A stretch of 49,561 nucleotides of DNA from a virus, in the IMG/VR virus record IMGVR_UViG_3300044692_000025, positions 1-49,561 of that record, one strand, 5' to 3'. Both the position numbers and the translations under genes were made by a program. Numbering within the stretch: position 1 is the stretch's first letter; each line of letters begins with the position of its first letter. Shown piece after piece: positions 2,695 to 20,643 of this stretch. Under the pieces are notes generated by a model. It was not told the origin of the DNA and did not search any database. It saw only the letters and a list, made by a program, of their open reading frames with translations.

Positions 2695-2745
2695 ATGGCC
2701 CCCGCGCTCCCTCTTCGGAGGTTGAGCGCGGGGGCCATTTTCGTG
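2695..2745 (+). terminator. Strong intrinsic terminator of the late operon
   Basis: A perfect 15-bp stem (2695-2709 with 2724-2738) encloses a second small hairpin, CCTC-TTCG-GAGG, so the whole element folds as a stacked stem capped by a stable UUCG-type tetraloop. ATTTTCG follows. It lies 28 bp after the stop of the beta-helix tail protein, at the end of all rightward structural genes, so it most likely ends the late transcript before the accessory block. Confidence 0.9.
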
Positions 2746-2866: not shown

Positions 2867-3004
2867 TCAGGGGGACAAGTCGGCACGGCGGGCGTACCGC
2901 GAACACAACGACGTCGCGTCGCCCTCACTGTCGACCCGCCAGGCGTGCTGCATGTGGTCCTGCGAATCCACCGACCACATCAGACCGTCATCCGGGCGGC
3001 TCAT
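2867..3004 (-). CDS. Small hypothetical protein (45 aa), last of a four-gene leftward operon
   Basis: A 45-residue ORF whose ATG overlaps the stop of the upstream gene (ATGA at 3001-3004). The protein has acidic and aromatic residues (LMWSVDSQDHMQHAWRVD) and a single Cys (SLCSRY). I recognise no domain; short AW-and-single-Cys proteins of this kind occur beside XRE/DUF397 loci in actinomycetes, but this is an impression from general knowledge and not a match. The coupling to its neighbour and the hairpin immediately downstream support it as a real gene. Confidence 0.55.
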   Translation of the reverse strand: MSRPDDGLMWSVDSQDHMQHAWRVDSEGDATSLCSRYARRADLSP

Positions 3005-3189
3005 GGCTGTCTCGCCTCAGGGACCGTGGACCGACCAGACACGGGAGGCGTCAGAGATGACGTGTCCGGCCGGTCCACGGAGTCATCGGGGGACAGGTCG
3101 GCGCACCGACAGTCCACGGCGCGGCACTGCCCGGACAACCACAGGACACACCTGGACCGTGCCGCTGCTGGACCGGTGAGCGCGCTCAC
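3001..3189 (-). CDS. Small cysteine-containing hypothetical protein (62 aa)
   Basis: GTG start whose first bases overlap the stop of the gene upstream (GTGA, 3186-3189), and whose own stop overlaps the ATG of the next gene. The protein has four Cys (RCVLW, GQCRAVDCRC) in its N-terminal half, a possible metal-binding cluster, and a Pro/Ser-rich low-complexity tail. No domain recognised. Overlaps on both sides argue for translation as part of one operon. Confidence 0.5.
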   Translation of the reverse strand: MSALTGPAAARSRCVLWLSGQCRAVDCRCADLSPDDSVDRPDTSSLTPPVSGRSTVPEARQP

Positions 3190-3380
3190 GATGTCCGCAC
3201 CCCCACAACCGAGGACGCCGCGACCAACAGGACCGCCTGCAACCTGCGCGCCTCACCTACGGCGATCGACGCCGACTCACCCGCCGGGAACCCGACCACG
3301 GTCAAGTGGCCCTGGTTCAGCACGGTCAGGGATCTGTTGCGGCCGACAGCGTCGGCACAGCGCACGGTCTGCCGATTCAC
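3186..3380 (-). CDS. Small hypothetical protein (64 aa)
   Basis: The GTG at 3380 is preferred over longer starts because GGAGGG lies just upstream at proper spacing; upstream codons are low-complexity Gly/Pro/His. The core (SLTVLNQGHLTVVGFPAGESA followed by ARRLQAVLLVAA) looks like two or three beta strands and a helix. It resembles, by pattern only, short proteins found next to XRE/DUF5753 genes in actinomycetes. The gene upstream (3475-3678) has a partly similar design: strands with a ligand-like GVSFTG turn, then a helix (NLRAKLAALL). The two may be distant paralogues. Confidence 0.6.
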   Translation of the reverse strand: MNRQTVRCADAVGRNRSLTVLNQGHLTVVGFPAGESASIAVGEARRLQAVLLVAASSVVGVRTS

Positions 3381-3474
3381 GGGGCCCTCCGGGGGAGTGT
3401 GGTGGTGGCCGGTGGGATGCGGCGCCCCGCCCGCGTGGGGGAGTCGAGGAGATGGGGCGCCGCGGCCTTGGGGG

Positions 3475-3678
3475 TCAGTCGCTGTCGATCCGGGAACCAT
3501 CGGAGACGTTCAACAGCGCGGCCAGCTTCGCCCGGAGATTCGCGACATCCATCAGCGATCCCGTGAAGGAGACGCCGCTGGGCTGGTGGGTGATGCGGAT
3601 CAGAGGCTTGCCGTCCTTGGACTTCTCGGTGGCGGCGGTGATCTCCTCACCGCTCATCGGTACCGTGTACTCGGCCAT
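3475..3678 (-). CDS. Small hypothetical protein (67 aa), first gene of the leftward operon
   Basis: ATG with an AGGAGG site 5-6 bases upstream, so the start is secure. Predicted beta strands (PLIRITHQPSGVSFTG) and one helix (MDVANLRAKLAALLNV). No domain recognised. It is transcribed divergently from the XRE-DUF5753 regulator at 3800, and the shared intergenic region carries paired CTACGTAG palindromes, so that regulator probably controls it. Confidence 0.7.
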   Translation of the reverse strand: MAEYTVPMSGEEITAATEKSKDGKPLIRITHQPSGVSFTGSLMDVANLRAKLAALLNVSDGSRIDSD

Positions 3679-3706
3679 CGACGCCTCCTGGGCGATCCGT
3701 AGAGCC

Positions 3707-3737
3707 TGCTACGTAGGAGCATGACTACTACGTAGCA
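3707..3737. promoter_or_regulatory. Operator: 10-bp inverted repeat of two CTACGTAG palindromes
   Basis: TGCTACGTAG (3707-3716) and CTACGTAGCA (3728-3737) are perfect inverted copies separated by 11 bp. Each contains the 8-bp palindrome CTACGTAG, centred 19 bp apart, close to two helical turns. It sits between the divergent starts at 3678 (-) and 3800 (+), 29 bp from the first and 62 bp from the second. This is the expected layout for a dimer- or tetramer-binding operator, most simply for the XRE-DUF5753 protein encoded next door. Confidence 0.65.
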
Positions 3738-3787
3738 CGGTGGCAATGCCCCATCCGGGGGATAACGAAGCCGGTCGACACGTCCCG

Positions 3788-3799
3788 TACGCTTGCTAC
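3788..3799 (+). promoter_or_regulatory. Possible -10 element of a leaderless transcript
   Basis: TACGCT at 3788-3793 fits the actinobacterial TANNNT -10 pattern and is 6 bases before the ATG at 3800, where no Shine-Dalgarno is seen. This suggests that the regulator mRNA starts at its own start codon. No convincing -35 is visible. Confidence 0.35.
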
Positions 3800-4651
3800 A
3801 TGTCGGTGAACACCAGTGGCGCCGGTAGCGCGGAGATGCGGGAACTGGGCGCTGGCCTGCGCAAGCTCCGCGAAGTGCGCTCCATGACCACGCGCGTGCT
3901 CGGCGAGCAGATCGGCATGTCCACAGCGAACATCTCCCATTGGGAGAACGGCGCACGCCTGATCAGCGCCGAACGTCTCGACCTCATGCTCGACGCCTTG
4001 CAACCCGACGACGCCGAACGCGAGCGACTGGTCAGCCTTCACCGCAAGGCAACCGGACCTGGTGAACTGGTCGCCGGCCAGACGACCATCGGCCAGCAAC
4101 TGGTGCAACTGATCGAATACGAGCAGGTCGCCACCCGGCTGACCGATGTCGCGCCGCTCATGATCCCCGGCCTGCTCCAGACCGAACGCTACGCGCGGGC
4201 CACCTTCGAGGGACTGACCGCCATCCCCACTCGCGTTGCACTCCGGTTAGGACGCCAGAAGATCCTCACGCGACCGCACGAGCCCGCCGAACTAGTCGCG
4301 TACATCGACAGCGAAGCCCTCACACGCCCGATTGCCGACGGTGACGTGATGGTCGACCAGTGGCGGCACCTGCTGGAGATGTCACAGCGGCCCAACGTCA
4401 CGATCCGGCTGGTGTCCAGCACGCTGCGCGGCTACAACCCGATGTTGGCCGGCCCGTTCCTGATACTGGAGTTCCCCAGCGCCAGCCCGGTCGTACACCT
4501 GGAGCATCACCGCACCGCAGCGTTCCTGTGGGAGGAGGAGGACGTCCGCGGCTTCGCCGCCGCGGTCGACAAGATAGATCAAATGGCGATGACCCCGGCC
4601 CAGACTGCCGAGGTCATCGCGGAGATCGTCAACGGAACGGAGTCGACATGA
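3800..4651 (+). CDS. XRE-family regulator with DUF5753 domain
   Basis: 283 residues from ATG 3800; a longer in-frame start at 3740 is unlikely because its codons lie across the operator edge and family members start near here. Residues about 15-70 form an XRE helix-turn-helix (LGEQIGMSTANISHWENG). The remaining ~200 residues match the DUF5753 domain (MIPGLLQTERYARA, RLGRQKIL, TIRLVSS, GPFLILEFPSASPVVHLEH). The family is widespread in actinomycete chromosomes, commonly just upstream of DUF397 genes as here, and is tied to developmental control and to a proposed toxin-antitoxin-like role. Its stop overlaps the DUF397 start (ATGA). Presence in a phage suggests cargo acquired from a host. Confidence 0.92.
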   Translation: MSVNTSGAGSAEMRELGAGLRKLREVRSMTTRVLGEQIGMSTANISHWENGARLISAERLDLMLDALQPDDAERERLVSLHRKATGPGELVAGQTTIGQQLVQLIEYEQVATRLTDVAPLMIPGLLQTERYARATFEGLTAIPTRVALRLGRQKILTRPHEPAELVAYIDSEALTRPIADGDVMVDQWRHLLEMSQRPNVTIRLVSSTLRGYNPMLAGPFLILEFPSASPVVHLEHHRTAAFLWEEEDVRGFAAAVDKIDQMAMTPAQTAEVIAEIVNGTEST

Positions 4652-4821
4652 CGACCATAGACCCCACCTGGCGCAAGAGCACCAGGTCCGCGCAGGAAAC
4701 GAACTGCGTCGAGGTCAGGAACGACCTCGGCGCCGTGCAGGACACGAAGCACCGCGGCCCGCATCTGACCGTGGATGTGGCCGCGCTGATCGCCGCGATC
4801 CGGAGCGGCCGGATGCGCTGA
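4648..4821 (+). CDS. DUF397 domain small protein
   Basis: 57 residues with the DUF397 hallmarks: WRKSTRS near the N-terminus, the NCVEV core, a VQDTK strand and a C-terminal helix (VAALIAAIRSG). The ATG overlaps the stop of the XRE-DUF5753 gene, giving the standard regulator/DUF397 pair. DUF397 proteins are thought to bind and modulate the adjacent XRE-DUF5753 regulator. The gene ends 18 bp before a perfect palindromic terminator. Confidence 0.92.
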   Translation: MTTIDPTWRKSTRSAQETNCVEVRNDLGAVQDTKHRGPHLTVDVAALIAAIRSGRMR

Positions 4822-4839: not shown

Positions 4840-4865
4840 GAGCCCCGGGCATATGCCCGGGGCTC
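4840..4865. terminator. Bidirectional palindromic terminator
   Basis: A perfect 26-bp palindrome with the core CCCCGGGCATATGCCCGGGG lies between two convergent genes (DUF397, + strand, ending 4821, and the MmpS-like protein, - strand, ending 4884). No U-tract; by position it should terminate or block read-through in both directions. Confidence 0.75.
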
Positions 4866-4883: not shown

Positions 4884-5603
4884 TCAGCCGTTGGAGCAGT
4901 CGACGATCGCGTACGTCCCGGTCGAGGTGTTCTGCTTCACGACCTGCCCGTTGATGGAGATGGAGCACGAGATCTTCCCACTGCCCGCGTTCTGCGCCGA
5001 GATCGAGAGGAAGCCCTCGCCGCCGGCCGGCACGGTGAACTGCTTCTTCCACGGTAGCCGGGTGGTGTCGGTGACCTGTGATATGTCCCCAGAGTCGTTC
5101 ATGAACGTGATCGTCCCGGCCCTGCGCCCGGTGACCGTATAGACGACGGTGTCCTCGCCCAGCGTGATCCCGCTGTCGCTGCCGCCTGTGTTCTGCGGCT
5201 GGTCGGACACCACCAGGTCAATGTGGTCGTTCTGTGGCACTGTGGCGCCGGCATTCGGGACGTCGATGACGACGCAGTTCGTATCCGATGCCGAGCAGGG
5301 CGTGTCGCCGCTGTACTCAGTGTTCGCGTCGATGACCGGATAGGCCAGCCCGACCTGGGTGAGTTCGGCGGTGGCGCTGCCCAGCGTCTGCCCGACCAGA
5401 TCGGTGGGGACCTGCACGCCGCTGGGAGTGATGGCTGGCGCCGGCGTGCTCGGCGCTGGCGGCTGTGCCGAGTTCTTCGGTGACCCGGTGGTGCCACCGA
5501 TGATGGCGGCGACGATGGCGATGACCGCGGCTGCGCCGGCGAACCAGGGCCAGCGCTTGCGGCGGCGTGGAGCGTCCTGGACGGCGGGTTGCGGGTACGT
5601 CAT
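4884..5603 (-). CDS. PASTA / MmpS-like membrane-anchored extracytoplasmic protein
   Basis: 239 residues from ATG 5603 (GAGG upstream); an alternative ATG at 5684 would add 27 residues. A basic cytoplasmic N-terminus (RRRKRWPW) precedes one transmembrane helix (about 20-37) and a Pro/Ala-rich linker. Residues about 64-134 form one PASTA-like repeat (VPTDLVGQTLGSATAELTQVG ... NDHIDLVVS) with two Cys, and about 147-239 match the MmpS/beta-sandwich type (VYTVTG, GDISQVTDT, LPWKKQF, ISAQN, SCSISING). PASTA repeats bind peptidoglycan or lipid II. In a prophage this would be displayed on the cell surface, so a lysogenic-conversion or phage-exclusion role is plausible but inferred. It is the last gene of the leftward operon from 7106. 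Confidence 0.8.
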   Translation of the reverse strand: MTYPQPAVQDAPRRRKRWPWFAGAAAVIAIVAAIIGGTTGSPKNSAQPPAPSTPAPAITPSGVQVPTDLVGQTLGSATAELTQVGLAYPVIDANTEYSGDTPCSASDTNCVVIDVPNAGATVPQNDHIDLVVSDQPQNTGGSDSGITLGEDTVVYTVTGRRAGTITFMNDSGDISQVTDTTRLPWKKQFTVPAGGEGFLSISAQNAGSGKISCSISINGQVVKQNTSTGTYAIVDCSNG

Positions 5604-5667: not shown

Positions 5668-5772
5668 TTACCACTGTCCATCATCTGTCTCCTTTCCGAC
5701 GAGGCCGAGCATCACGCCGAGCACGGTCAGCCCGTCGCAGAGGCGCTCCCACGCGGCGGACAAGCGGGTCAC
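5668..5772 (-). CDS. Small amphipathic or hydrophobic peptide (34 aa)
   Basis: The GTG at 5772 overlaps the stop of the gene upstream (GTGA). The peptide has a helix with a hydrophobic face (WERLCDGLTVLGVMLGLVG) and an acidic end. No family recognised. It is supported mainly by stop-start coupling and its place in the leftward operon, so it could be a membrane-associated small protein or not a gene at all. Confidence 0.4.
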   Translation of the reverse strand: MTRLSAAWERLCDGLTVLGVMLGLVGKETDDGQW

Positions 5773-6095
5773 GACAAACCTGCCGTGACCAGTGCGGCGG
5801 CACCCAGCCACGCCCAGTGCCATGCCTGATCCAGGGCGTACGCGCCAGAGGCGAGTGGCGGTGTCCCGGACCGCCAGAACCCGCCCAACCCGAGGGCGTC
5901 GGCCAGTCGGGCGAGTGGGAGGCGCCGGTCCGCGACGTAGTGCGACACCGCCGACACGCCCAGGCCAAGGGTGAGGCCGAGGGTCGTGAGGTGTAGGTGC
6001 ACCACCACTGCGACCGCCACGACCGCCGCGAACTGGGTGAGCGTGTAGGTCGCGACGTGCGCAGCGCACGCGAGCCGACCGGGCCAGCCGTCCAC
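5769..6095 (-). pseudogene. 5'-truncated DUF3307-like membrane protein
   Basis: The 108 residues from GTG 6095 begin abruptly at GWPGRLACAAHVATYTLTQ, a segment that in DUF3307-like actinobacterial and actinophage proteins lies after an N-terminal HxxADYW-type stretch, which is missing here. Two or three transmembrane helices follow (VAVAVVVHLHL ..., ALDQAWHWAWLGAAALVTAG) with conserved SHYVADRR and LDQAWH motifs. No Shine-Dalgarno precedes the GTG, and the reading frame opens inside the GH76-like gene. I read this as the 3' remnant of a gene fused out of frame to a GH76 5' remnant. A functional shortened protein translated by re-initiation cannot be excluded. Confidence 0.6.
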
Positions 6096-6556
6096 CCGCT
6101 GGCGAGGTAGTCGTCGAGGTCTTCGGCGGTGGCCAGCATCGCCTTGTCCCCGGTCTGCTGGTAGGCGTCCAGCCAGAGCAGGGCCCACCAGCCGGAGTCG
6201 TCGTAGTTGTTGGTCCGGTAGCCCTGGATGTGCAGGACCTTCGCGTCCAGGTTGGTCTCGTAGGAGTGGATCAGGTCGCCGTCGTAGGCGTGCGAGCCGA
6301 GAGCCTGCTCGGCGCGGACGACGACATCGAGTGCGGCGGCGGACTGCCACCACGCGGCGGTCGGGTCCGTGGCGAACCGGCCGTCGACGGGGTTGTAGTC
6401 GGCCATCAGCCCGGCCAACGCGGACTCGGTGGCGGTGCGGGCATCGAAACGCGTCGGCCCGGCGTCGGAATGCGACGGCCACGCAGCGGCCACGGTGAGG
6501 ATGGCGGCCGCCGTGGCGAGGACGGCGGCGACGACGAGACGGAGAGGGCGGGTCAC
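6096..6556 (-). pseudogene. 3'-truncated GH76-family glycoside hydrolase
   Basis: GTG 6556 overlaps the preceding stop (GTGA). The protein begins with a signal peptide (VVAAVLATAAAILTVAAAWP) and then a recognisable GH76 half (LMADYNPVDGRF, WWQSAAALDVVVRAEQALG, NNYDDSGWWALLWLDAYQQTGD, DDYLASGW). GH76 enzymes are alpha-1,6-mannanases or transglycosidases of about 350 residues. Here family similarity stops at residue ~154 and the frame continues to 5681 as Arg/Ser/Pro-rich out-of-frame translation. The catalytic Asp pair of GH76 and the second half of the barrel are therefore absent. Probably inactive; a host-derived mannan-processing gene caught in a deletion. Confidence 0.65.
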
Positions 6557-7185: not shown

Positions 7186-8676
7186 ATGACGGTGGCTGAC
7201 GCACCCAACCCACTCCTTGGACGCGAATACCTGCGCGTATCCAAGGACAAGTCCGGCCGGGGCCGCTCCCCCAACCAGCAGCACGACGACAACATGCCCG
7301 TGGCCACCGAGATGGGCATCACCCTGATCTACCCGGCATACCGAGACGATGACCGCTCGGCCAGCCGGCACGCGAGGAAGATCCGCGAGGACTTCGGCCG
7401 GTTGATCGCCGACCTGGAGGCCGACCAGTTCGGCGCCAGGGTGCTCGTGCTGTGGGAATCCAGCCGTGGCAGCCGGCAGGTCGAGGAGTGGGTCCAGCTG
7501 CTGAAGCTCCTGCGGGCGCGCCGGGTGAAGATCCTCGTCACGACGCACCGGCGCCTGTACGACCCGGCGTTGCCCCGTGACTGGCGCAGTCTGATGGACG
7601 ACGCGGTGGAAAGCGAATACCAGTCCGACGAGACCCACCTGCGGGTGCTGCGGGACGTGGCGGCGAACGCGGCCGCCGGCCGTCCGCACGCCGTGGCGAA
7701 CTTCGGGTTCAAACGGATCTACGACGACCGGTCGGGGGAACTGCTGGAGCAGGTCGCTGACCCGGTCGAGGCGCCGCTGGTTGCGGAGATGTTCGAGCGG
7801 ATGGACAGGGGCGAGTCGATCCGGTCCATCGAACGAGACTGGGAGCGGCGGCAGATCCGGGACCGGTATGGGCGAGGATTCTCTTCGTCGCGGCTGCGGA
7901 AGATGGCTCGCAACCCGGCCTACATCGGGCTGCGGGTGCACGACCCGGACCGCGTGCATCACCCTACGCAGGCCATCCGGCCGGAGTCGCGGGTCGTCAA
8001 GGCGATCTGGCCGCCGCTAGTCGAACGGGAATTGTTCGACCGGGTGCAGGCCATCCTCACCGACCCGGGCAGGCTGACCCGCCGAGGCGGGGACAGTCGG
8101 GCACAGCACCTGTTGAGCATGATCGCGGTGTGCGGGGTGTGCGGCGAGGTAGTCGACCGGACGCGCCGGCAGCGCAAGGACGAGAGCTTCTACACCCGGT
8201 ACCGGTGCAAGACGCGCGGGTGCGTGGTGGTCGACCAGGACTCGTTGGACGCGTTCGCCACGGAGGCGATCTTCGCGTTCGTGGCGAGGCTGGACAACTA
8301 CGGCGGGTTCGTCGAGCGTTCCTCGGCGGACCTGGAGGCCGCGGAGCGGGAGCTGGCCGAGGCGCACGCCGAGCACGAGGAGTTGGCCTCCTTGTCGGTG
8401 CGGCTGGCCGCCCGGATGGAACCGCCGGTCCTGGCGAAGATCGCGCGGCTGGAGTCGGTCGTGGCCGAGTTGCGGGTACCGACCCAGTTGGCCGGCCTGC
8501 TACGGCCAGGCGAGGACATCCGGGCCAGGTGGGCTGATCCGTCGACGCCCATGTCGGTGAAGCGGTCGTTCGCGCGGGCGGTGTTCAGCGCGTCGATGCT
8601 CGGAACTTTGGCCGTGCTCCCCCAGTCGGAGCGCGGCGGCCCGGTCGGTGACCGGGTGGAGTTCCGCACGTCGTGA
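7186..8676 (+). CDS. int: Large serine recombinase (phage integrase)
   Basis: 496 residues. The resolvase domain carries the catalytic YLRVS motif (nucleophile Ser19, with Arg17) and the conserved downstream part (LVLWESSRGSR, EYQSDETHLRVLRDVAANAAAGRPHAVANFGF). A recombinase domain follows (about 180-300), then a zinc ribbon with C316, C319, C341 and C346, and a coiled coil (DLEAAERELAEAHAEHEEL). Length and domain order are typical of phiC31/Bxb1-type integrases that join attP and attB. No clear Shine-Dalgarno is seen before the ATG. Excision would need a recombination directionality factor, not identified here. Confidence 0.96.
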   Translation: MTVADAPNPLLGREYLRVSKDKSGRGRSPNQQHDDNMPVATEMGITLIYPAYRDDDRSASRHARKIREDFGRLIADLEADQFGARVLVLWESSRGSRQVEEWVQLLKLLRARRVKILVTTHRRLYDPALPRDWRSLMDDAVESEYQSDETHLRVLRDVAANAAAGRPHAVANFGFKRIYDDRSGELLEQVADPVEAPLVAEMFERMDRGESIRSIERDWERRQIRDRYGRGFSSSRLRKMARNPAYIGLRVHDPDRVHHPTQAIRPESRVVKAIWPPLVERELFDRVQAILTDPGRLTRRGGDSRAQHLLSMIAVCGVCGEVVDRTRRQRKDESFYTRYRCKTRGCVVVDQDSLDAFATEAIFAFVARLDNYGGFVERSSADLEAAERELAEAHAEHEELASLSVRLAARMEPPVLAKIARLESVVAELRVPTQLAGLLRPGEDIRARWADPSTPMSVKRSFARAVFSASMLGTLAVLPQSERGGPVGDRVEFRTS

Positions 8677-9197: not shown

Positions 9198-9692
9198 TTA
9201 CTCCGACGTGTCAAGAAGATCGGAGAGACGTTCATCTGGGACCGCGTCCAGCGTCCGCTTCAGGGTCGCCGTCCACTCTTCCCTGATCGTGTCGAGCAGT
9301 TCCGGGTGCTTTTGGACGACGGCGGCAAAGAGTGCGCGCATGATCTCTTCGCGCTGTTCTGCCGGGCCGCGTCGTCTAGCTGCACTGCCGTTGTCCAACA
9401 CGAACACGGACTCGTCTCCCGTTTCTAGGTAGCGGACAACGGAGTCCTCTGGCCAACCGAAAGCGCGCGCGACCGCCTCGTAGATGGTCGGTCCCACCGG
9501 ATCGCCATTTTCGAGTTTGACGAGGCTACGTAGGCCGACCCGAGCCGACTTGGCGAAGCTTGGTCGCCATTGGTGGCCGGCCGCCTCCCTGGTGCGGATC
9601 ACGATTAGGCCGAGATCCTTCCGGCGGCGTTCCGAGAATTCCTTGGTGTTCGGGCGCTCCGCTGTTGCCACGTGTGCATCATGGCGCACCAT
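9198..9692 (-). CDS. Immunity repressor (XRE-like HTH)
   Basis: 164 residues from ATG 9692; GTG at 9671 is an alternative (157 aa). Neither has a Shine-Dalgarno, so leaderless translation is likely. Residues about 18-80 form an XRE-like helix-turn-helix (SFAKSARVGLRSLVKLENGDPVGPTIYEAVARAFGW); a C-terminal helical domain (EEIMRALFAAVVQKHPELLDTIREEW) probably dimerises. It is divergent from a rightward HTH gene and separated from it by nine GCACCAT-type repeats, the first cluster of which overlaps its own start codon, so autoregulation is expected. Position next to int fits the lysogeny repressor. Confidence 0.8.
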   Translation of the reverse strand: MVRHDAHVATAERPNTKEFSERRRKDLGLIVIRTREAAGHQWRPSFAKSARVGLRSLVKLENGDPVGPTIYEAVARAFGWPEDSVVRYLETGDESVFVLDNGSAARRRGPAEQREEIMRALFAAVVQKHPELLDTIREEWTATLKRTLDAVPDERLSDLLDTSE

Positions 9693-9853
9693 CGCGCACC
9701 ACACCACCTGCCTGGACCAGCGCGACTGGTGCCGGCGCTGCCCCCCGTATGTCCGCGACAGTGTTCGCATGCGTGCACCATAGCGCACCATAACGCATGA
9801 TCGGTACCTTCGTGCATTGACATGCGATGCACCATCGTGCACCATCGTGTCAT
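9676..9853. promoter_or_regulatory. Immunity operator: three triplets of GCACCAT repeats at 10-bp period
   Basis: Related 7-mers start at 9676, 9686, 9696 (GCATCAT, GCACCAT, GCACCAC); at 9775, 9785, 9795 (GCACCAT, GCACCAT, GCATGAT); and at 9829, 9839, 9849 (GCACCAT, GCACCAT, and a degenerate GTCATG). Within each triplet the spacing is exactly 10 bp, one helical turn. The first triplet covers the repressor start. The third lies between a TTGACA (9817-9822) and the start codon of the rightward gene at 9852. This is a direct-repeat operator, unlike the dyad operators of lambda. Confidence 0.8.
9817..9851 (+). promoter_or_regulatory. Probable early rightward promoter
   Basis: A perfect TTGACA at 9817-9822 lies 35 bp upstream of the ATG at 9852. 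The -10 region (about 9840-9845, CACCAT) is poor but overlaps two operator repeats, so repressor binding would occlude it. The downstream gene has no Shine-Dalgarno, consistent with a leaderless early transcript. Confidence 0.5.
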
Positions 9854-10169
9854 GCCCCAAGTCTATGGCAACGCGTGGCGACACTACCGGGCGCGGATGG
9901 ACATCACATCCGACGACGCGGCCGCACTGCTCAAGATCGCCGGGGGAGCGTTGCGTCAGATCGAAACGGGCGTGAAGCCCGCGTCGCTGGCGCTCGCCTA
10001 CCGGGCAGCGCGGCTGTATGGATGCGACGTGTCCGACCTCGTCGCCACCGGCGAGGGCGTGCCGGACGAGCCTCCGAAAAAGAAGGAAGGCGGCAAGGCG
10101 CCCACTCGCCGCAAGGAGAGCACTACCAGGCCGAAGCGTCCGGAACACTCCGAGGCGATCGCGTCATGA
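9852..10169 (+). CDS. Cro-like XRE helix-turn-helix protein, first early gene
   Basis: 105 residues from ATG 9852; an upstream in-frame start would run through the operator. Residues about 5-65 form an XRE domain (WRHYRARMDITSDDAAALLKIAGGALRQIETG ... ARLYGCDVSDL). The C-terminus is a basic, Lys/Arg-rich tail. It is divergent from the repressor and starts the long early operon, the position of Cro; its stop overlaps the next start (ATGA). Confidence 0.78.
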   Translation: MPQVYGNAWRHYRARMDITSDDAAALLKIAGGALRQIETGVKPASLALAYRAARLYGCDVSDLVATGEGVPDEPPKKKEGGKAPTRRKESTTRPKRPEHSEAIAS

Positions 10170-10354
10170 CCACCCTCGACGACCACCCGATGTATGACGA
10201 CCCCGAGCGATGGCCACACCTGAAGTTCCTCACGCGCTCGGACATCGCCAAGGCGCGTGCTGCGGCTGCCGCCTCTCCGCCCTTTGACCACGAGACGCTG
10301 CGCCGGCTCGCTGCGAGCCTGCCGCCCGTCGAGGCACGGCGGGGTGCGGCATGA
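10166..10354 (+). CDS. Small hypothetical protein (62 aa)
   Basis: ATG overlaps the Cro-like stop, and its stop overlaps the antirepressor start (ATGA both). Mainly helical, with two predicted helices (RSDIAKARAAAAA and ETLRRLAASL) after an aromatic N-terminus (MYDDPERWPHLKF). No domain recognised; perhaps a partner of the flanking regulators. Confidence 0.7.
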   Translation: MTTLDDHPMYDDPERWPHLKFLTRSDIAKARAAAAASPPFDHETLRRLAASLPPVEARRGAA

Positions 10355-11106
10355 GCGACCTGATCCCGTTCGACATCGACGGCGCCGGCTGCCGGTTCGG
10401 CAAGGACGACGACGGCACGGCGTGGGTCGTCGCATCGGACTTCGCCAAGCTCATGGGTTACCGCGATGCCCGCGATGCCGCCCGCCTGCTCGATGACGGC
10501 GAGAAGGGTACGCAGATTGTGCGTACCCCTGGCGGCGATCAGCGGATGACCATCTTCTACGAGGACGGCATCTGGGAGCTGATCTTCCGCTCGACGCTGC
10601 CGGCCGCCAAGGCGATCAAGTCGCGCGTGAAGGCGATCCTCCGGGAGATCCGGGAGACCGGCCGGTACGCCGTCGACTCGGCATACGAGATCCCGAAGGA
10701 CTACCCGTCCGCGCTGGAGCTGGCCGCCCGGATGGCCCGTGAACTGGAGACGGCTGAACGGCGGGCCGCCGAGCTGGAGCCGGCCGCGAGGTCGTGGACC
10801 GAGCTGGCTGATGCGGGCGGGGACTTCTCGCTCCGTGAGGCCGCGCAGATCCTGCGCCGGTCGGGCGTGGACACCGGACAGAACCGGCTGTCCCGCTACC
10901 TGAAGGAGATCGGCTGGACCGACAAGTCCGGCCAGCCCTACCAGTCCCAGGTCGACGCGGGCCGGCTGGTCCGCCGTGCGACCGGTGGCTACGACACCTC
11001 GTCGGGCGAACACGTCGCGACGTGGCAGCTGCGGATCACCCCGAAGGGCGTGGCCGAACTGCACCGACTGATGGGCGGCGGCGGTCCGCTGCTGCTCGCG
11101 GTCTGA
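10351..11106 (+). CDS. Phage antirepressor (BRO-N and KilA-C domains)
   Basis: 251 residues. The N-terminal ~100 residues match the BRO-N DNA-binding domain (WVVASDFAKLMGYRDARDAARLLDDGEKG, YEDGIWELIFRSTLPAAKAIKSRVKAILREIRETG). A helical linker (ALELAARMARELETAERRAAELE) leads to a KilA-C (ANT) domain (FSLREAAQILRRSG..., RLSRYLKEIGW). Such proteins antagonise repressors or act as early regulators. ATGA overlap with the gene before. Confidence 0.93.
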   Translation: MSDLIPFDIDGAGCRFGKDDDGTAWVVASDFAKLMGYRDARDAARLLDDGEKGTQIVRTPGGDQRMTIFYEDGIWELIFRSTLPAAKAIKSRVKAILREIRETGRYAVDSAYEIPKDYPSALELAARMARELETAERRAAELEPAARSWTELADAGGDFSLREAAQILRRSGVDTGQNRLSRYLKEIGWTDKSGQPYQSQVDAGRLVRRATGGYDTSSGEHVATWQLRITPKGVAELHRLMGGGGPLLLAV

Positions 11107-11124
11107 CAACAGTACGAAATGGAC

Positions 11125-11154
11125 GCGGGTCGCCCGTGCGACCGAGCGACCCGC
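11125..11154 (+). terminator. Hairpin after the antirepressor, possible attenuator
   Basis: A perfect 9-bp stem GCGGGTCGC/GCGACCCGC (11125-11133 and 11146-11154) with a 12-nt loop lies in the first real gap of the early operon. No U-tract. It could partially terminate, leaving downstream genes dependent on read-through. Confidence 0.5.
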
Positions 11155-11176
11155 CTGAACACGAGGAGTGAGCCTC

Positions 11177-11395
11177 ATGTCCATCCAGAAGTCTCCCATA
11201 CCACCGCCGGCCGATCTCGGTCTGCACGCTGGCGACCACATCACGCCCCAGGGCTACGACGTCGACCTGGAGGTCATCTCCGTGGTCGACCACACGCAGG
11301 ACGCCATCGGCCAGACCGTGTACGAGCTGGTCGACACGGCGGGCTACCTGTGGTTGCTGATCGGCGGGGTCGCCATCAAGGGCGGTGTCCGGTGA
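11177..11395 (+). CDS. Small hypothetical protein (72 aa)
   Basis: ATG 11177 is chosen because GAGGAG (11163-11168) ends 8 bases upstream; the GTG at 11168 overlaps that site. The sequence looks like a small beta-barrel (GDHITPQGYDVDLEVISVVDHTQDAIGQTVYELVDTAG). Unknown function; stop overlaps the next GTG. Confidence 0.65.
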   Translation: MSIQKSPIPPPADLGLHAGDHITPQGYDVDLEVISVVDHTQDAIGQTVYELVDTAGYLWLLIGGVAIKGGVR

Positions 11396-11559
11396 GCGAC
11401 ATCTACCAGAAGTTGTGGCAGTCCGAGACCAGACGCGAGATCAAGCAGACCCTCGCGAAGGCCACGAAGGACATCCGGCACAGCGACCAGTCCGCCCTCG
11501 GGATCTCCACCGACCAGGCCATGGAGGCCATCCGACGCGGGCAGGAGGAGAAGCGGTGA
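11392..11559 (+). CDS. Small hypothetical helical protein (55 aa)
   Basis: GTG overlaps the previous stop (GTGA) and the stop overlaps the next GTG. Charged and helical throughout (REIKQTLAKATKDI, DQAMEAIRRGQEE). No family recognised. Confidence 0.6.
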   Translation: MSDIYQKLWQSETRREIKQTLAKATKDIRHSDQSALGISTDQAMEAIRRGQEEKR

Positions 11560-11927
11560 GCGGCATGTTCGCGGTGACCGCACCCGCCGAACTGTGGTCA
11601 GTGCTCAACGACGCCGTAGCGCTGAAGGACCTCCGGCTGACACGGGTCGAGACGTCGCCGGCGCAGACACCCCGCTACCTGCTGGGCGTGAACCTCGTCG
11701 ACCATCGGCCGCCCGAGGACACCGTCCTGACCGAGCGGGAGATGCAGATCCTCGTGCGCGTCGCACAGGGCATGTCGAACTCGCAGATCGGCAAGGCGAT
11801 GTTCCTGTCCGGGGACACGGTGAAGACGTACAACCGGCGGCTGTTCCGGAAGCTGGGCGCGCGGGACCGGGCGCACGCGGTGCACATCGCGCACACGCGG
11901 GGACTGCTCGGAGGTGAACGGTCGTGA
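11556..11927 (+). CDS. LuxR-type HTH protein
   Basis: 123 residues from GTG 11556 with GAGGAG upstream. The C-terminal ~65 residues are a LuxR/GerE helix-turn-helix (LTEREMQILVRVAQGMSNSQIGKAMFLSGDTVKTYNRRLFRKLG). The N-terminal ~55 residues form a short unidentified beta-rich domain, not a receiver. It shares the R-AHAV end pattern with the second LuxR-type gene at 12587. Likely a DNA-binding regulator of phage or host promoters. Confidence 0.85.
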   Translation: MSGMFAVTAPAELWSVLNDAVALKDLRLTRVETSPAQTPRYLLGVNLVDHRPPEDTVLTEREMQILVRVAQGMSNSQIGKAMFLSGDTVKTYNRRLFRKLGARDRAHAVHIAHTRGLLGGERS

Positions 11928-16146: not shown

Positions 16147-17093
16147 CGGCGTTCGCCGCCATCAAGTGGGCGAGGTCGGCTCCCATCCTGCGGCGTGGGG
16201 ATGGGAAGCCGGACTCGACGGCTCATCACGTCCTGCTCGCCCTGGCCACGTTCGCGGACCGGGATGGTAGGGCGCGGCCTTCGGTGGCGACGCTGGCGGA
16301 CGCGACGACGCTGGCTGACCGGACCGTGGTGGAGTCGCTGCGCCGGCTGGAAGACGCGGGTCTGATCAAGTCGGAGGGGAAGTACGGCGGCACGGGTGCC
16401 GCCGTGTGGATGCTGGTGATGGACACCACGCGGTCTGAGACGGACGGCGATCTACTCGGCCGGCGGTCCCGCAAGCGCGAGGCGACCGCTGCGCGAGTGG
16501 CCAAGTTCCGGTTGCTGCGCAAGGAGGTAACGCCGCCGGAAAGCGTTACTGATGATCTAAGTAACGCCCCCGCAGAGCGTTACGTAACGCCGTCGGACGG
16601 CGTTACCGAGTTGCCTGTAACGCCGTCGCACGACATCGGTAACGCCGTCGGACAGCGTTATGTAACGCCGTCCGACGACAAATGTAACGCCGTCGACTGC
16701 GTTACAAGCGCTGATCAGAGCCCTAGAACTGCCATTGAACTGCCAGTAGAACTGCCATTGAACTGCCACGCGCTGCCTACGGCAGCGCAGCGCGCGCGAA
16801 ACTCCTACCCACCAGAGTTCGAGGAGTTCTGGGCCGCATACGGCCGCAAGGGTGCCAAGCGCGCCGCCGGTGCCGAATGGACCCGTGCCGTGAAGCGCGC
16901 CGACCCGACGACGATCCTCGCCGCGGTCCCCGCCTACGTCGCCAGCACGCCGAACCCGCGCTACCGCAAGGACGCCGAACGGTGGCTCAAGGGCGACTGC
17001 TGGGAATCGACCGTCGTCCCGATCCGCGCTGCCGGTGACTACCAGCCCTACCGCAACCCGATCGACCAGTCCGTCTATCACGAGGACCTGTGA
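16143..17093 (+). CDS. Replication initiator (lambda O-like / winged-helix)
   Basis: 316 residues, GTG start. The N-terminal ~90 residues are a winged helix (TAHHVLLALATFADRDGRARPSVATLADATTLADRTVVESLRRLEDAGLIK). The C-terminal ~90 (YPPEFEEFWAAYGRKGAKRAAGAEWTRAV ... RYRKDAERWLKG) match the phage replisome-organiser or helicase-loading tail. The middle (about 128-190) is encoded by seven iterons and is correspondingly repetitive (YVTPSDG, NAVGQRYVTPSDD). The gene directly downstream encodes a DnaC-like loader, the O/P order of lambda. Confidence 0.85.
   Translation: MTAFAAIKWARSAPILRRGDGKPDSTAHHVLLALATFADRDGRARPSVATLADATTLADRTVVESLRRLEDAGLIKSEGKYGGTGAAVWMLVMDTTRSETDGDLLGRRSRKREATAARVAKFRLLRKEVTPPESVTDDLSNAPAERYVTPSDGVTELPVTPSHDIGNAVGQRYVTPSDDKCNAVDCVTSADQSPRTAIELPVELPLNCHALPTAAQRARNSYPPEFEEFWAAYGRKGAKRAAGAEWTRAVKRADPTTILAAVPAYVASTPNPRYRKDAERWLKGDCWESTVVPIRAAGDYQPYRNPIDQSVYHEDL
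16527..16705. repeat. Seven iterons: probable origin of replication inside the initiator gene
   Basis: GTAACGCC-N7-8-GCGTTAC-type repeats start at 16527, 16561, 16584, 16617, 16639, 16662 and 16684. Those at 16527, 16561, 16584, 16639 and 16684 are near-palindromic with both arms (GTAACGCC and GCGTTAC/T); 16617 and 16662 keep only the left arm. The common core is GTAACGCCGTCGGAC. Tandem initiator-binding sites inside the initiator gene recall the lambda O gene. Confidence 0.85.
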
Positions 17094-19545: not shown

Positions 19546-20643
19546 GTGTCCACCACCGTCACCAACCAGGCCGAACTTGACATGGCACTGGCTGACGACA
19601 GCATCACCCACATCCTGATCGACTCACCGGCAGGCGTCTGGCTCACAATCGGTGACACTCACGGCAAACAGGTCGACATCGCCGGCAAATCCACCATCAA
19701 AGAACTGGGCGACACCGCCCGCGTCGGGTCGATGCGCGACACCGCCCGCGTCGAGTGGATGCGCGACACCGCCAGCGTCGGGTCGATGGGCGACACCGCC
19801 CGCGTCGAGTGGATGGGCGACACCGCCCGCGTCGAGTGGATGGGCGACACCGCCAGCGTCGAGTGGATGGGCGACACCGCCCGCGTCGAGTGGATGGGCG
19901 ACACCGCCCGCGTCGGGTCGATGGGCGACACCGCCCGCGTCGAGTGGATGGGCGACACCGCCCGCGTCGGGTCGATGGGCGACACCGCCAGCGTCGAGTG
20001 GATGGGCGACACCGCCCGCGTCGGGTCGATGCGCGACACCGCCCGCGTCGGGTCGATGCGCGACACCGCCAGCGTCGAGTGGATGCGCGACACCGCCAGC
20101 GTCGGGTCGATGGGCGACACCGCCCGCGTCGAGTCGGCCGCTGGCACCGTGGCCATCCAAGGTGTCCATGATCAGGCGACCGTTCACGCCGGTGCCTACG
20201 TCGCCGTGCACGTGTACTCGGCCACAGCCACCGTCGAGGGCGGCCACATCATCGACCTCACCCGCCTCGACGAGCTCGCCGGTCCGGAGTGGTGCGAGTT
20301 CCGCGGCATCCAAGTCGACAAGCTGCGCGCCGACCTGGAGTGGATCACCGCCCATCCCGACGAGTGGGACCAGGGTGTCTGGGCGCGCAAGACAGCCTGT
20401 GGCACCGCGTGCTGCCTCGCCGGCACCGCTGTGGTTCGTTCCGGGATCGGATTGCAGTGGGAGGGCGATCAGGCTGACTACACGGAGCACGGCGTGTTGA
20501 TCTCGACCGCCGCTGCCCAGTTGTACGGGCTGAGCGACCCGGAGGGGCTGTTCGCGGGTGAAAACTCGCTGCGGCGGCTGTGGGAAATCGCCTCGGAGCT
20601 GACGCGTGGCGTGATTCAGGTGCCGGCGGATCTTCCGGAGTGA
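19546..20643 (+). CDS. 9-residue tandem-repeat protein with a conserved C-terminal domain
   Basis: 365 residues from GTG 19546 (GGAG upstream). An N-terminal domain of ~54 residues (ELDMALADDSITHILIDSPAG) leads into 16 near-identical 9-residue units (GDTARVEWM and variants) and about four degenerate ones. Regular D-T-A-x-V spacing suggests a beta-solenoid. From about 245 a C-terminal domain (LRADLEWITAHPDEWDQGVWARKT, CGTACCLAG) is of a type seen in uncharacterised mycobacteriophage-like proteins. Without transmembrane or signal segments it is likely cytoplasmic. Function unknown; a DNA-mimic, binding scaffold or inhibitor are all possible. Confidence 0.8.
   Translation: MSTTVTNQAELDMALADDSITHILIDSPAGVWLTIGDTHGKQVDIAGKSTIKELGDTARVGSMRDTARVEWMRDTASVGSMGDTARVEWMGDTARVEWMGDTASVEWMGDTARVEWMGDTARVGSMGDTARVEWMGDTARVGSMGDTASVEWMGDTARVGSMRDTARVGSMRDTASVEWMRDTASVGSMGDTARVESAAGTVAIQGVHDQATVHAGAYVAVHVYSATATVEGGHIIDLTRLDELAGPEWCEFRGIQVDKLRADLEWITAHPDEWDQGVWARKTACGTACCLAGTAVVRSGIGLQWEGDQADYTEHGVLISTAAAQLYGLSDPEGLFAGENSLRRLWEIASELTRGVIQVPADLPE
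19708..20139 (+). repeat. 16 tandem copies of a 27-bp coding repeat
   Basis: Each unit is GGCGACACCGCC plus 15 bases, encoding GDTARVEWM. Variation is almost binary at three places: first codon GGC/CGC (G/R), fifth codon CGC/AGC (R/S), seventh-eighth codons GAGTGG/GGGTCG (EW/GS). Unit order: GR-GS, RR-EW, RS-GS, GR-EW, GR-EW, GS-EW, GR-EW, GR-GS, GR-EW, GR-GS, GS-EW, GR-GS, RR-GS, RS-EW, RS-GS, then a final GR unit ending ESA. The array opens long stop-free frames on both strands. Confidence 0.95.

What the first reader, a model, noticed from the sequence alone, without database searches (positions are those of the whole stretch)
2867..4821. Candidate undescribed phage cargo: four small genes divergent from an XRE-DUF5753/DUF397 pair under paired CTACGTAG operators
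The actinomycete DUF5753/DUF397 pair is here part of a phage genome and faces an operon of four small proteins (67, 64, 62 and 45 aa; the last three linked by GTGA/ATGA overlaps). The shared 121-bp gap holds two perfect CTACGTAG palindromes in inverted arrangement 19 bp apart. The block is isolated by terminators on both sides (2695-2745; 4840-4865) and lies at the presumed prophage end. This has the anatomy of a self-contained module, for example a regulated toxin-antitoxin, anti-phage or host-development switch. The pair is known in the family; the combination and its target genes are my inference.
Basis: partly seen in the sequence, partly recalled or inferred. Interest (0 to 1): 0.8.

Follow-up and report, generated by a model that had tools for sequence, protein, structure and literature searches.

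The report
Phage-borne whiJ–bldB switch with divergent gene
A complete actinomycete phage genome carries a small regulatory cassette of the kind that controls development in Streptomyces: a DNA-binding protein, its small partner and a tiny gene facing the other way. Its DNA-binding sites appear both between the genes and around the regulator's own start codon, so the local target of this poorly understood regulator family can be read from sequence and tested.

Summary
The core observation holds. The XRE-DUF5753 gene (3800-4651), the DUF397 gene (4648-4821), the 121-bp gap and the two CTACGTAG sites 19 bp apart are real. The four-gene operon is not supported: only the 67-aa ORF has strong coding signal and relatives; the 64-aa ORF is possible; the 62- and 45-aa ORFs have no support. 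The record is a complete genome (124-bp terminal repeat). The block lies between the late genes and the serine integrase, not at a contig-edge prophage end.

Comparative work shows a WhiJ/BldB-type locus, anatomically like iosA-whiJ9-bldB9 of Streptomyces venezuelae. In 56 related loci the 6-bp half-site before the regulator's start codon recurs in the gap, is mirrored just inside the coding sequence, and changes with the recognition helix. CTACGTAG is therefore very probably this regulator's own operator, and the regulator likely controls its own leaderless promoter and the divergent gene. The 67-aa family's six strong matches in 299 genomes all lie beside such a regulator. Six cultivated phages carry the same kind of cassette, so the kind is known. 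Biological role is unproven; toxin-antitoxin and phage-immunity readings are less likely.

The parts
3800..4651 (+). XRE-family regulator with HTH_31 + DUF5753 (WhiJ/Hpb type), 283 aa, probably leaderless
   Evidence: Pfam; -10-like TANNNT at -12/-13 of the start codon in 45 of 56 relatives
4648..4821 (+). DUF397 (BldB-type) small partner protein, 57 aa, ATGA overlap with the XRE gene
   Evidence: Pfam PF04149 E 3.7e-11; coding score 0.29 per codon
3475..3678 (-). divergent 67-aa gene, first and best supported leftward gene; predicted beta-beta-beta-beta-alpha fold
   Evidence: highest coding score in the block; Shine-Dalgarno AGGAGG; family of relatives at the same place in L001, L044, L045, L046, L048, L055, L060; AlphaFold mean pLDDT 75.7
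3186..3380 (-). 64-aa ORF (GTG), possible second gene of the leftward transcript
   Evidence: coding score 0.18 per codon, GC3 0.85, GGAGGG before the start; no relative found
3001..3189 (-). 62-aa ORF, probably not a gene
   Evidence: negative coding score; no family match
2867..3004 (-). 45-aa ORF, unsupported
   Evidence: coding score 0.10 per codon; no family match
3707..3737 (.). paired operator O1/O2: TGCTACGTAG-n11-CTACGTAGCA
   Evidence: same layout in L001 (TGTTACGTAG-n11-CTACGTAACA) and, with other sequences, in further relatives
3793..3812 (.). operator O3 around the XRE start codon: TTGCTAC-ATG...GTGAACA
   Evidence: half-site recurrence and mirror symmetry across the start codon in 56 relatives
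3788..3793 (+). -10-like element TACGCT of the XRE promoter (leaderless)
   Evidence: sequence; 45 of 56 relatives carry TANNNT at this spacing
3718..3746 (-). inferred leftward promoter: TTGCCA (3746-3741), 17 bp, CATGCT (3723-3718); the -10 lies between the two palindromes
   Evidence: sequence; the -35 core (CAAT on the + strand) is conserved near -55 in 39 of 56 relatives against 5.9 expected; promoter itself inferred
2695..2738 (.). stem-loop between the tail gene and the block, terminator-like
   Evidence: 15/15-bp arms; not called by the consensus terminator scan
4840..4865 (.). 26-bp perfect palindrome after DUF397, terminator-like
   Evidence: sequence; not called by the consensus terminator scan

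Best explanation
The block is a phage-carried WhiJ/BldB-type (XRE-DUF5753/DUF397) regulatory cassette with one local target, the divergent 67-aa gene, possibly followed by the 64-aa ORF. The XRE dimer recognises TGCTAC half-sites. At O3, two half-sites flank its own leaderless start codon, so binding should shut off the XRE-DUF397 transcript. At O1/O2, the paired CTACGTAG palindromes overlap the inferred -10 and spacer of the leftward promoter, so binding should repress, or switch, the 67-aa gene. The DUF397 protein, made from the same transcript, is the partner that adjusts the XRE protein, as proposed for BldB paralogs and WhiJ. The phage most likely keeps the cassette as cargo expressed in the lysogen, with the 67-aa protein as output. 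Shown here: gene identities, operator layout, its recurrence and its link to the recognition helix, and co-occurrence of the small gene. Inferred: binding, direction of control, DUF397 role, lysogenic expression.
For: Family membership. Operator layout shared with the phage contig L001, whose XRE is 63-65% identical and whose paired site is a variant. In 56 non-redundant relatives the 6-bp half-site before the start codon occurs 2.86 times in the gap at <=1 mismatch, against 1.44 for half-sites borrowed from other loci (p 5e-4, the floor of the test), and is mirrored at +8..+13 (3.61 of 6 matches against 2.71, p 2e-4; no signal at offsets 5, 6 or 8). The operator differs between loci together with the recognition helix: SHSVVVRWE with GAGACC, SHSAISRWE with GGCACC, SNASLSRYE with GTTACC, HSRISEIE with TGTTCGCGAACA, S-ANISHWE with TACGTA. 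The 67-aa family: six of six strong genome matches lie beside a related XRE. Leaderless promoter and conserved leftward -35 core. Precedent: WhiJ9 binds repeats in the iosA-whiJ9 gap, activates iosA and appears to repress itself (PMC10294661).
Against: No binding or expression data exist for this phage. In the precedent WhiJ9 activates its divergent gene, so the sign of control here could be activation. The window's own start-codon site is an imperfect mirror and its single-locus test is borderline (p 0.05-0.11). The window's 67-aa protein is only weakly recognised by a profile built without it (best of 486 window ORFs, but E 0.16), so part of its family claim rests on position. The helix-operator link is partly confounded with relatedness. 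Only 36 of 56 loci have at least two own-half-site hits in the gap.
Confidence: 0.7

Rival explanations
1. Type II toxin-antitoxin module: DUF397 is a toxin, XRE its antitoxin and repressor, the cassette an addiction element.
For: Proposed from genome patterns (PMC2701414; PMC4239341); two-gene overlap, mobility, autoregulatory operator.
Against: Overexpression of 14 DUF397 proteins of S. coelicolor was not toxic and none of the pairs behaved as a TA system (PMC10364602). A divergent target gene with its own operator is not TA anatomy. No TA or defence family match for the small proteins.
Confidence: 0.07
2. The XRE protein is the phage's immunity repressor and the gap is the lysis-lysogeny switch.
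For: A phage XRE regulator with paired palindromic operators and a divergent gene, near the integrase.
Against: A separate immunity-type region exists at 9198-11106: a leftward 157-aa HTH-like gene, a rightward HTH gene, a BRO/KilAC antirepressor, and five copies of a different repeat (GCACCAT, 10-bp register) between them. The paired CTACGTAG site does not occur there; the one copy at 9526 is inside a gene. Samy carries a comparable pair but its putative immunity repressor is another gene, SAMYPH_32 (PMC11302927).
Confidence: 0.1
3. Anti-phage or superinfection-exclusion cargo: the 67-aa protein (with or without the 64-aa ORF) is an effector released from repression on infection.
For: Cargo position between late genes and integrase; small fast-evolving proteins under a dedicated regulator; second genes that vary between loci.
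Against: No match to PADLOC models for the small ORFs, no domain match; relatives are mostly chromosomal, not clustered with known defence genes in the few neighbourhoods examined.
Confidence: 0.13
4. Host-development switch: the cassette plugs into the host's BldB/WhiJ network and delays or alters sporulation or antibiotic production of the lysogen. (This is a reading of the biological role; it is compatible with the mechanism in the best explanation.)
For: BldB paralogs hetero-oligomerise; iosA, divergent from whiJ9, inhibits sporulation (PMC10294661); phages Picard and Darolandstone carry a HATPase (AbaA-like) gene divergent from the pair.
Against: The 67-aa protein is not AbaA- or zf-HC3-like by Pfam; IosA was not compared, since its sequence was not at hand; host unknown; no phenotype data.
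Confidence: 0.3

Closest known systems
iosA-whiJ9-bldB9 locus of Streptomyces venezuelae (PMC10294661)
   Same: XRE gene followed by a DUF397 gene, divergent small gene, repeats in the shared gap bound by the XRE protein, a leaderless message in the locus, autorepression indicated
   Different: Chromosomal; divergent protein is 15-kDa IosA, itself the leaderless one; WhiJ9 site is three direct repeats CGXXCTCAAC, not paired palindromes; there the divergent gene is activated
XRE-DUF397 pairs of Streptomyces phages Picard and Darolandstone
   Same: Pair in a phage genome near the endolysin/tail genes, in Darolandstone also near a serine integrase; divergent genes
   Different: Divergent gene is HATPase_c_2 (AbaA-like); XRE only about 30% identical; no TACGTA site in the gap examined
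XRE-DUF397 pair of Saccharomonospora phage PIS 136 (PIS_119/120)
   Same: Closest XRE in cultivated phages, 41% identical; gap holds TGTGAACACA-type sites, and a GTG that could be the true start is flanked by TGTGC and GCACAC
   Different: Divergent gene is a zf-HC3 zinc-finger protein, not the 67-aa family
IMG/VR contig 3300044667_000292 (L001/L005)
   Same: 63-65% identical XRE, same paired TACGTA operator, same start-codon site, divergent small gene, next to phage tail genes
   Different: Small protein 24% identical; second gene zinc-ribbon-like; contig ends at the XRE gene, so DUF397 unseen
Scr1/Scr2 and the other XRE-DUF397 pairs of S. coelicolor (PMC6262351, PMC10364602)
   Same: Same two-protein architecture
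   Different: Studied as pleiotropic regulators of antibiotic production; divergent targets and operators not defined in the passages read

Membership tests
WhiJ/BldB-type XRE-DUF5753/DUF397 pair | N-terminal XRE-type HTH followed by DUF5753 | tested here: met
   HTH_31 E 4.4e-12, DUF5753 E 2.7e-47
WhiJ/BldB-type XRE-DUF5753/DUF397 pair | Adjacent small DUF397 gene with C-V-E motif | tested here: met
   PF04149 E 3.7e-11, NCVEV present; C, V, E invariant in 14 aligned relatives
iosA-whiJ9-bldB9-like locus (divergent target under the XRE protein) | Divergent gene sharing the gap | tested here: met
   67-aa gene, 121-bp gap; family conserved at the same place
iosA-whiJ9-bldB9-like locus (divergent target under the XRE protein) | XRE protein binds repeats in the gap | tested here: inconclusive
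   Comparative support only: half-site recurrence and recognition-helix link; no binding assay possible
IosA family | Divergent protein homologous to IosA | not tested
   IosA sequence not at hand; size (15 kDa against 67 aa) argues against
Type II toxin-antitoxin | Toxicity of one partner, neutralised by the other | not testable with these tools
   14 homologous DUF397 proteins were not toxic (PMC10364602)
DUF397 family (for the 67-aa protein) | Profile similarity to DUF397 | tested here: not met
   hhalign probability 0.2%
PUR-repeat (Pur-alpha) fold (for the 67-aa protein) | Beta-beta-beta-beta-alpha fold similar to PUR repeats | tested here: inconclusive
   Top 21 Foldseek hits are Pur-alpha, but E 0.013-0.4, TM about 0.56, model pLDDT 75.7 from two sequences
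Phage immunity repressor | Operators at the early lytic promoter | tested here: not met
   Paired CTACGTAG site occurs only at 3707-3737; the early region has other repeats

The most novel reading that the evidence does not exclude
DUF5753-type regulators of this clade carry a self-declaring operator: the sequence flanking their own leaderless start codon repeats the operator that controls the divergent gene, and both change with the recognition helix. Operators and targets of hundreds of orphan XRE-DUF397 pairs could then be read from sequence. In this phage the output is a new family of PUR-like, possibly nucleic-acid-binding, 60-67-aa proteins used as lysogen cargo.
Probability: 0.4. Interest if true: 0.65.

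Novelty: new variant of a known kind. Interest (0 to 1): 0.5.

Why it matters
XRE-DUF397 pairs are among the most multiplied regulator families of actinomycetes (median 19 BldB paralogs per bldB-containing genome, up to 94; PMC10294661), yet few have a known binding site or target. Here the site and the local target can be read from sequence, in a small phage genome in which one such pair was found, so the function of the pair could be tested as an isolated cassette. It also shows that phages carry the whiJ-bldB logic of actinomycete development, with interchangeable divergent genes (AbaA-like HATPase, zf-HC3, the 67-aa family).

Tried and rejected
Protein searches of the 67-aa and 64-aa ORFs in IMG/VR found nothing, nor did the 67-aa ORF in cultivated phages and plasmids. 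The exact operator pattern in IMG/VR found only L001/L005. A broad phylum sample at E 1e-45 gave nothing. A 297-genome class sample gave no small-protein match, though without a positive control. Distant XRE relatives (about 30-42% identity) do not show the operator layout (16 loci, combined p 0.5 and 1.0), so the layout is a property of the closer clade. The small protein was tested as a DUF397 relative and rejected. A single-sequence DUF397 model was too poor to use. L047 has a 5'-truncated XRE gene and was set aside. The four-gene operon was rejected on coding signal. Rfam: no match. The consensus promoter scan found nothing, as is common for high-GC DNA. PDB profile hits for the small family were chance-like.

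Full report
1. What is in the sequence. The window is the whole IMG/VR record, 49,561 bp, with an identical 124-bp stretch at both ends, so it is a circularly closed complete genome and the window edges are not prophage ends. Terminase, portal, major capsid, tape measure, serine integrase and antirepressor genes are present. The nearest cultivated terminase is about 58% identical, in Streptomyces phage Kromp. CTACGTAG occurs three times in the window against 0.16 expected.

2. The small ORFs. A codon-usage score trained on the phage's long genes gives the 67-aa ORF 0.46 per codon (a level reached by the best structural genes), the 64-aa ORF 0.18, the 45-aa ORF 0.10 and the 62-aa ORF -0.10. Shine-Dalgarno sequences fit the first two. 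None of the small ORFs has a significant match in Pfam, PHROGs, NCBIfam or PADLOC. The four-gene operon is therefore not supported; one gene is, with a possible second.

3. Relatives of the regulator. The closest relative is on another phage contig, L001, with a 63-65% identical XRE next to tail genes. It has the operator TGTTACGTAG-n11-CTACGTAACA at the same distance and a divergent 64-aa gene. Among 299 genomes of one (unnamed) actinomycete family, 73 hold relatives at E <= 1e-48, the best at 52-53% identity. Cultivated phages with the pair are Saccharomonospora phage PIS 136 and Streptomyces phages Samy, Success, Darolandstone, Picard and Ididsumtinwong. Their divergent genes differ: HATPase_c_2 (AbaA-like) in Darolandstone and Picard, zf-HC3 in PIS 136, no Pfam match in the other three.

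4. Relatives of the 67-aa gene. L001, L044, L045, L046, L055 and L060 carry a 60-64-aa divergent gene of the same pattern (M-x-x-W/Y-x-V ... helix with LR..L..AI). Used as a seed, the profile found L048 at the expected place (E 3e-10). In 299 genomes all six strong matches lie beside a related XRE gene. The family is fast-evolving: the profile without the window ranks the window's 67-aa ORF first of 486 ORFs, but only at E 0.16. The second genes downstream differ between loci, so the 64-aa ORF has no counterpart. AlphaFold gives a beta-beta-beta-beta-alpha fold (mean pLDDT 75.7); the 21 best PDB matches are all Pur-alpha repeats, but weak (E 0.013 and above). This is a lead to nucleic-acid binding, not a result.

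5. Operators. In loci of the close clade the gap holds paired sites whose sequence differs from locus to locus: L060 TTGTTCGCGAACA-n8-TGTTCGCGAACAA, L072 TTGGTCTCGGGACCA-n7-TGGTCCCGAGACCAA, L066 TGTTACCGCA-n12-TGCGGTAACA. Against dinucleotide shuffles, repeated 6-mers in the gap and their recurrence at the start codon are significant for the close clade (25 loci, combined p 2e-8 and 1e-10) and not for 16 distant ones. In 56 non-redundant loci the 6 bp before the start codon recur in the gap more than other loci's half-sites do (2.86 against 1.44), and are mirrored at +8..+13 only at that offset. Pairs of loci with near-identical recognition helices share more gap 6-mers (10.5 against about 4.6-4.9 for unlike helices); relatedness contributes to this. 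A TANNNT -10 element 12-13 bp before the start codon in 45 of 56 loci indicates a leaderless XRE transcript, and a conserved CAAT near -55 (39 of 56, 5.9 expected) fits the -35 of the leftward promoter.

6. How it most likely works. In the window, O3 (3793-3812) covers the XRE start codon and inferred transcription start, so XRE binding should repress its own transcript. O1/O2 (3707-3737) overlaps the inferred leftward -10 (3718-3723) and spacer, so binding should repress or switch the 67-aa gene. DUF397 probably modulates the XRE protein, as proposed for BldB paralogs. The sign is inferred; WhiJ9 activates iosA (PMC10294661).

7. Rivals. The TA reading is weakened by the lack of toxicity of 14 DUF397 proteins (PMC10364602). 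The immunity-repressor reading is weakened by a separate region at 9198-11106 with other repeats. Anti-phage cargo and host-development control both remain open.

8. Novelty. The kind, an XRE-DUF397 pair with a divergent target, is known. Not found in the papers that could be searched here (open-access library only) are the 67-aa family, the operator around the regulator's own start codon with its link to the recognition helix, and a phage-borne case with a legible operator. Hence new variant of a known kind.

Noticed in passing
window 5681-6556 (-): ORF starts as a glycosyl hydrolase family 76-like protein (Pfam E 7e-6) but loses coding signal downstream, where another frame reads like a membrane protein; looks like a truncated gene, fused or frameshifted.
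   Followed up: partly
window 19706-20130 (+): About sixteen copies of a 27-bp tandem repeat inside the ORF 19546-20643, encoding a 9-residue repeat.
   Followed up: no
window 9198-11106: Probable immunity region: leftward 157-aa HTH-like gene, five GCACCAT-type repeats in 10-bp register, rightward HTH gene and a BRO/KilAC antirepressor.
   Followed up: partly
window 4884-5603 (-): PASTA domain plus weak Mycobact_memb similarity, probably secreted, convergent with the DUF397 gene; another likely lysogen cargo gene.
   Followed up: no
window 16724-16768: Direct repeat TAGAACTGCCATTGAACTGCCA with 23-bp spacing inside a coding region.
   Followed up: no
L043 2290-2733 and L152 2286-2732: Streptomyces phages Darolandstone and Picard carry a HATPase_c_2 gene divergent from their XRE-DUF397 pair, i.e. 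an abaA-whiJ-bldB-like cluster in a phage.
   Followed up: partly
L079 (G888:C16) 7290-8171 and 10778-11668: Two DUF5753-type regulator genes lie about 2.6 kb apart around the small-gene region, suggesting local duplication of the cassette.
   Followed up: no
L076 (G823:C37), locus L047: A 53%-identical XRE gene has lost its 5' part, including the DNA-binding domain, at a junction with unrelated sequence; a natural recombinant or remnant.
   Followed up: no
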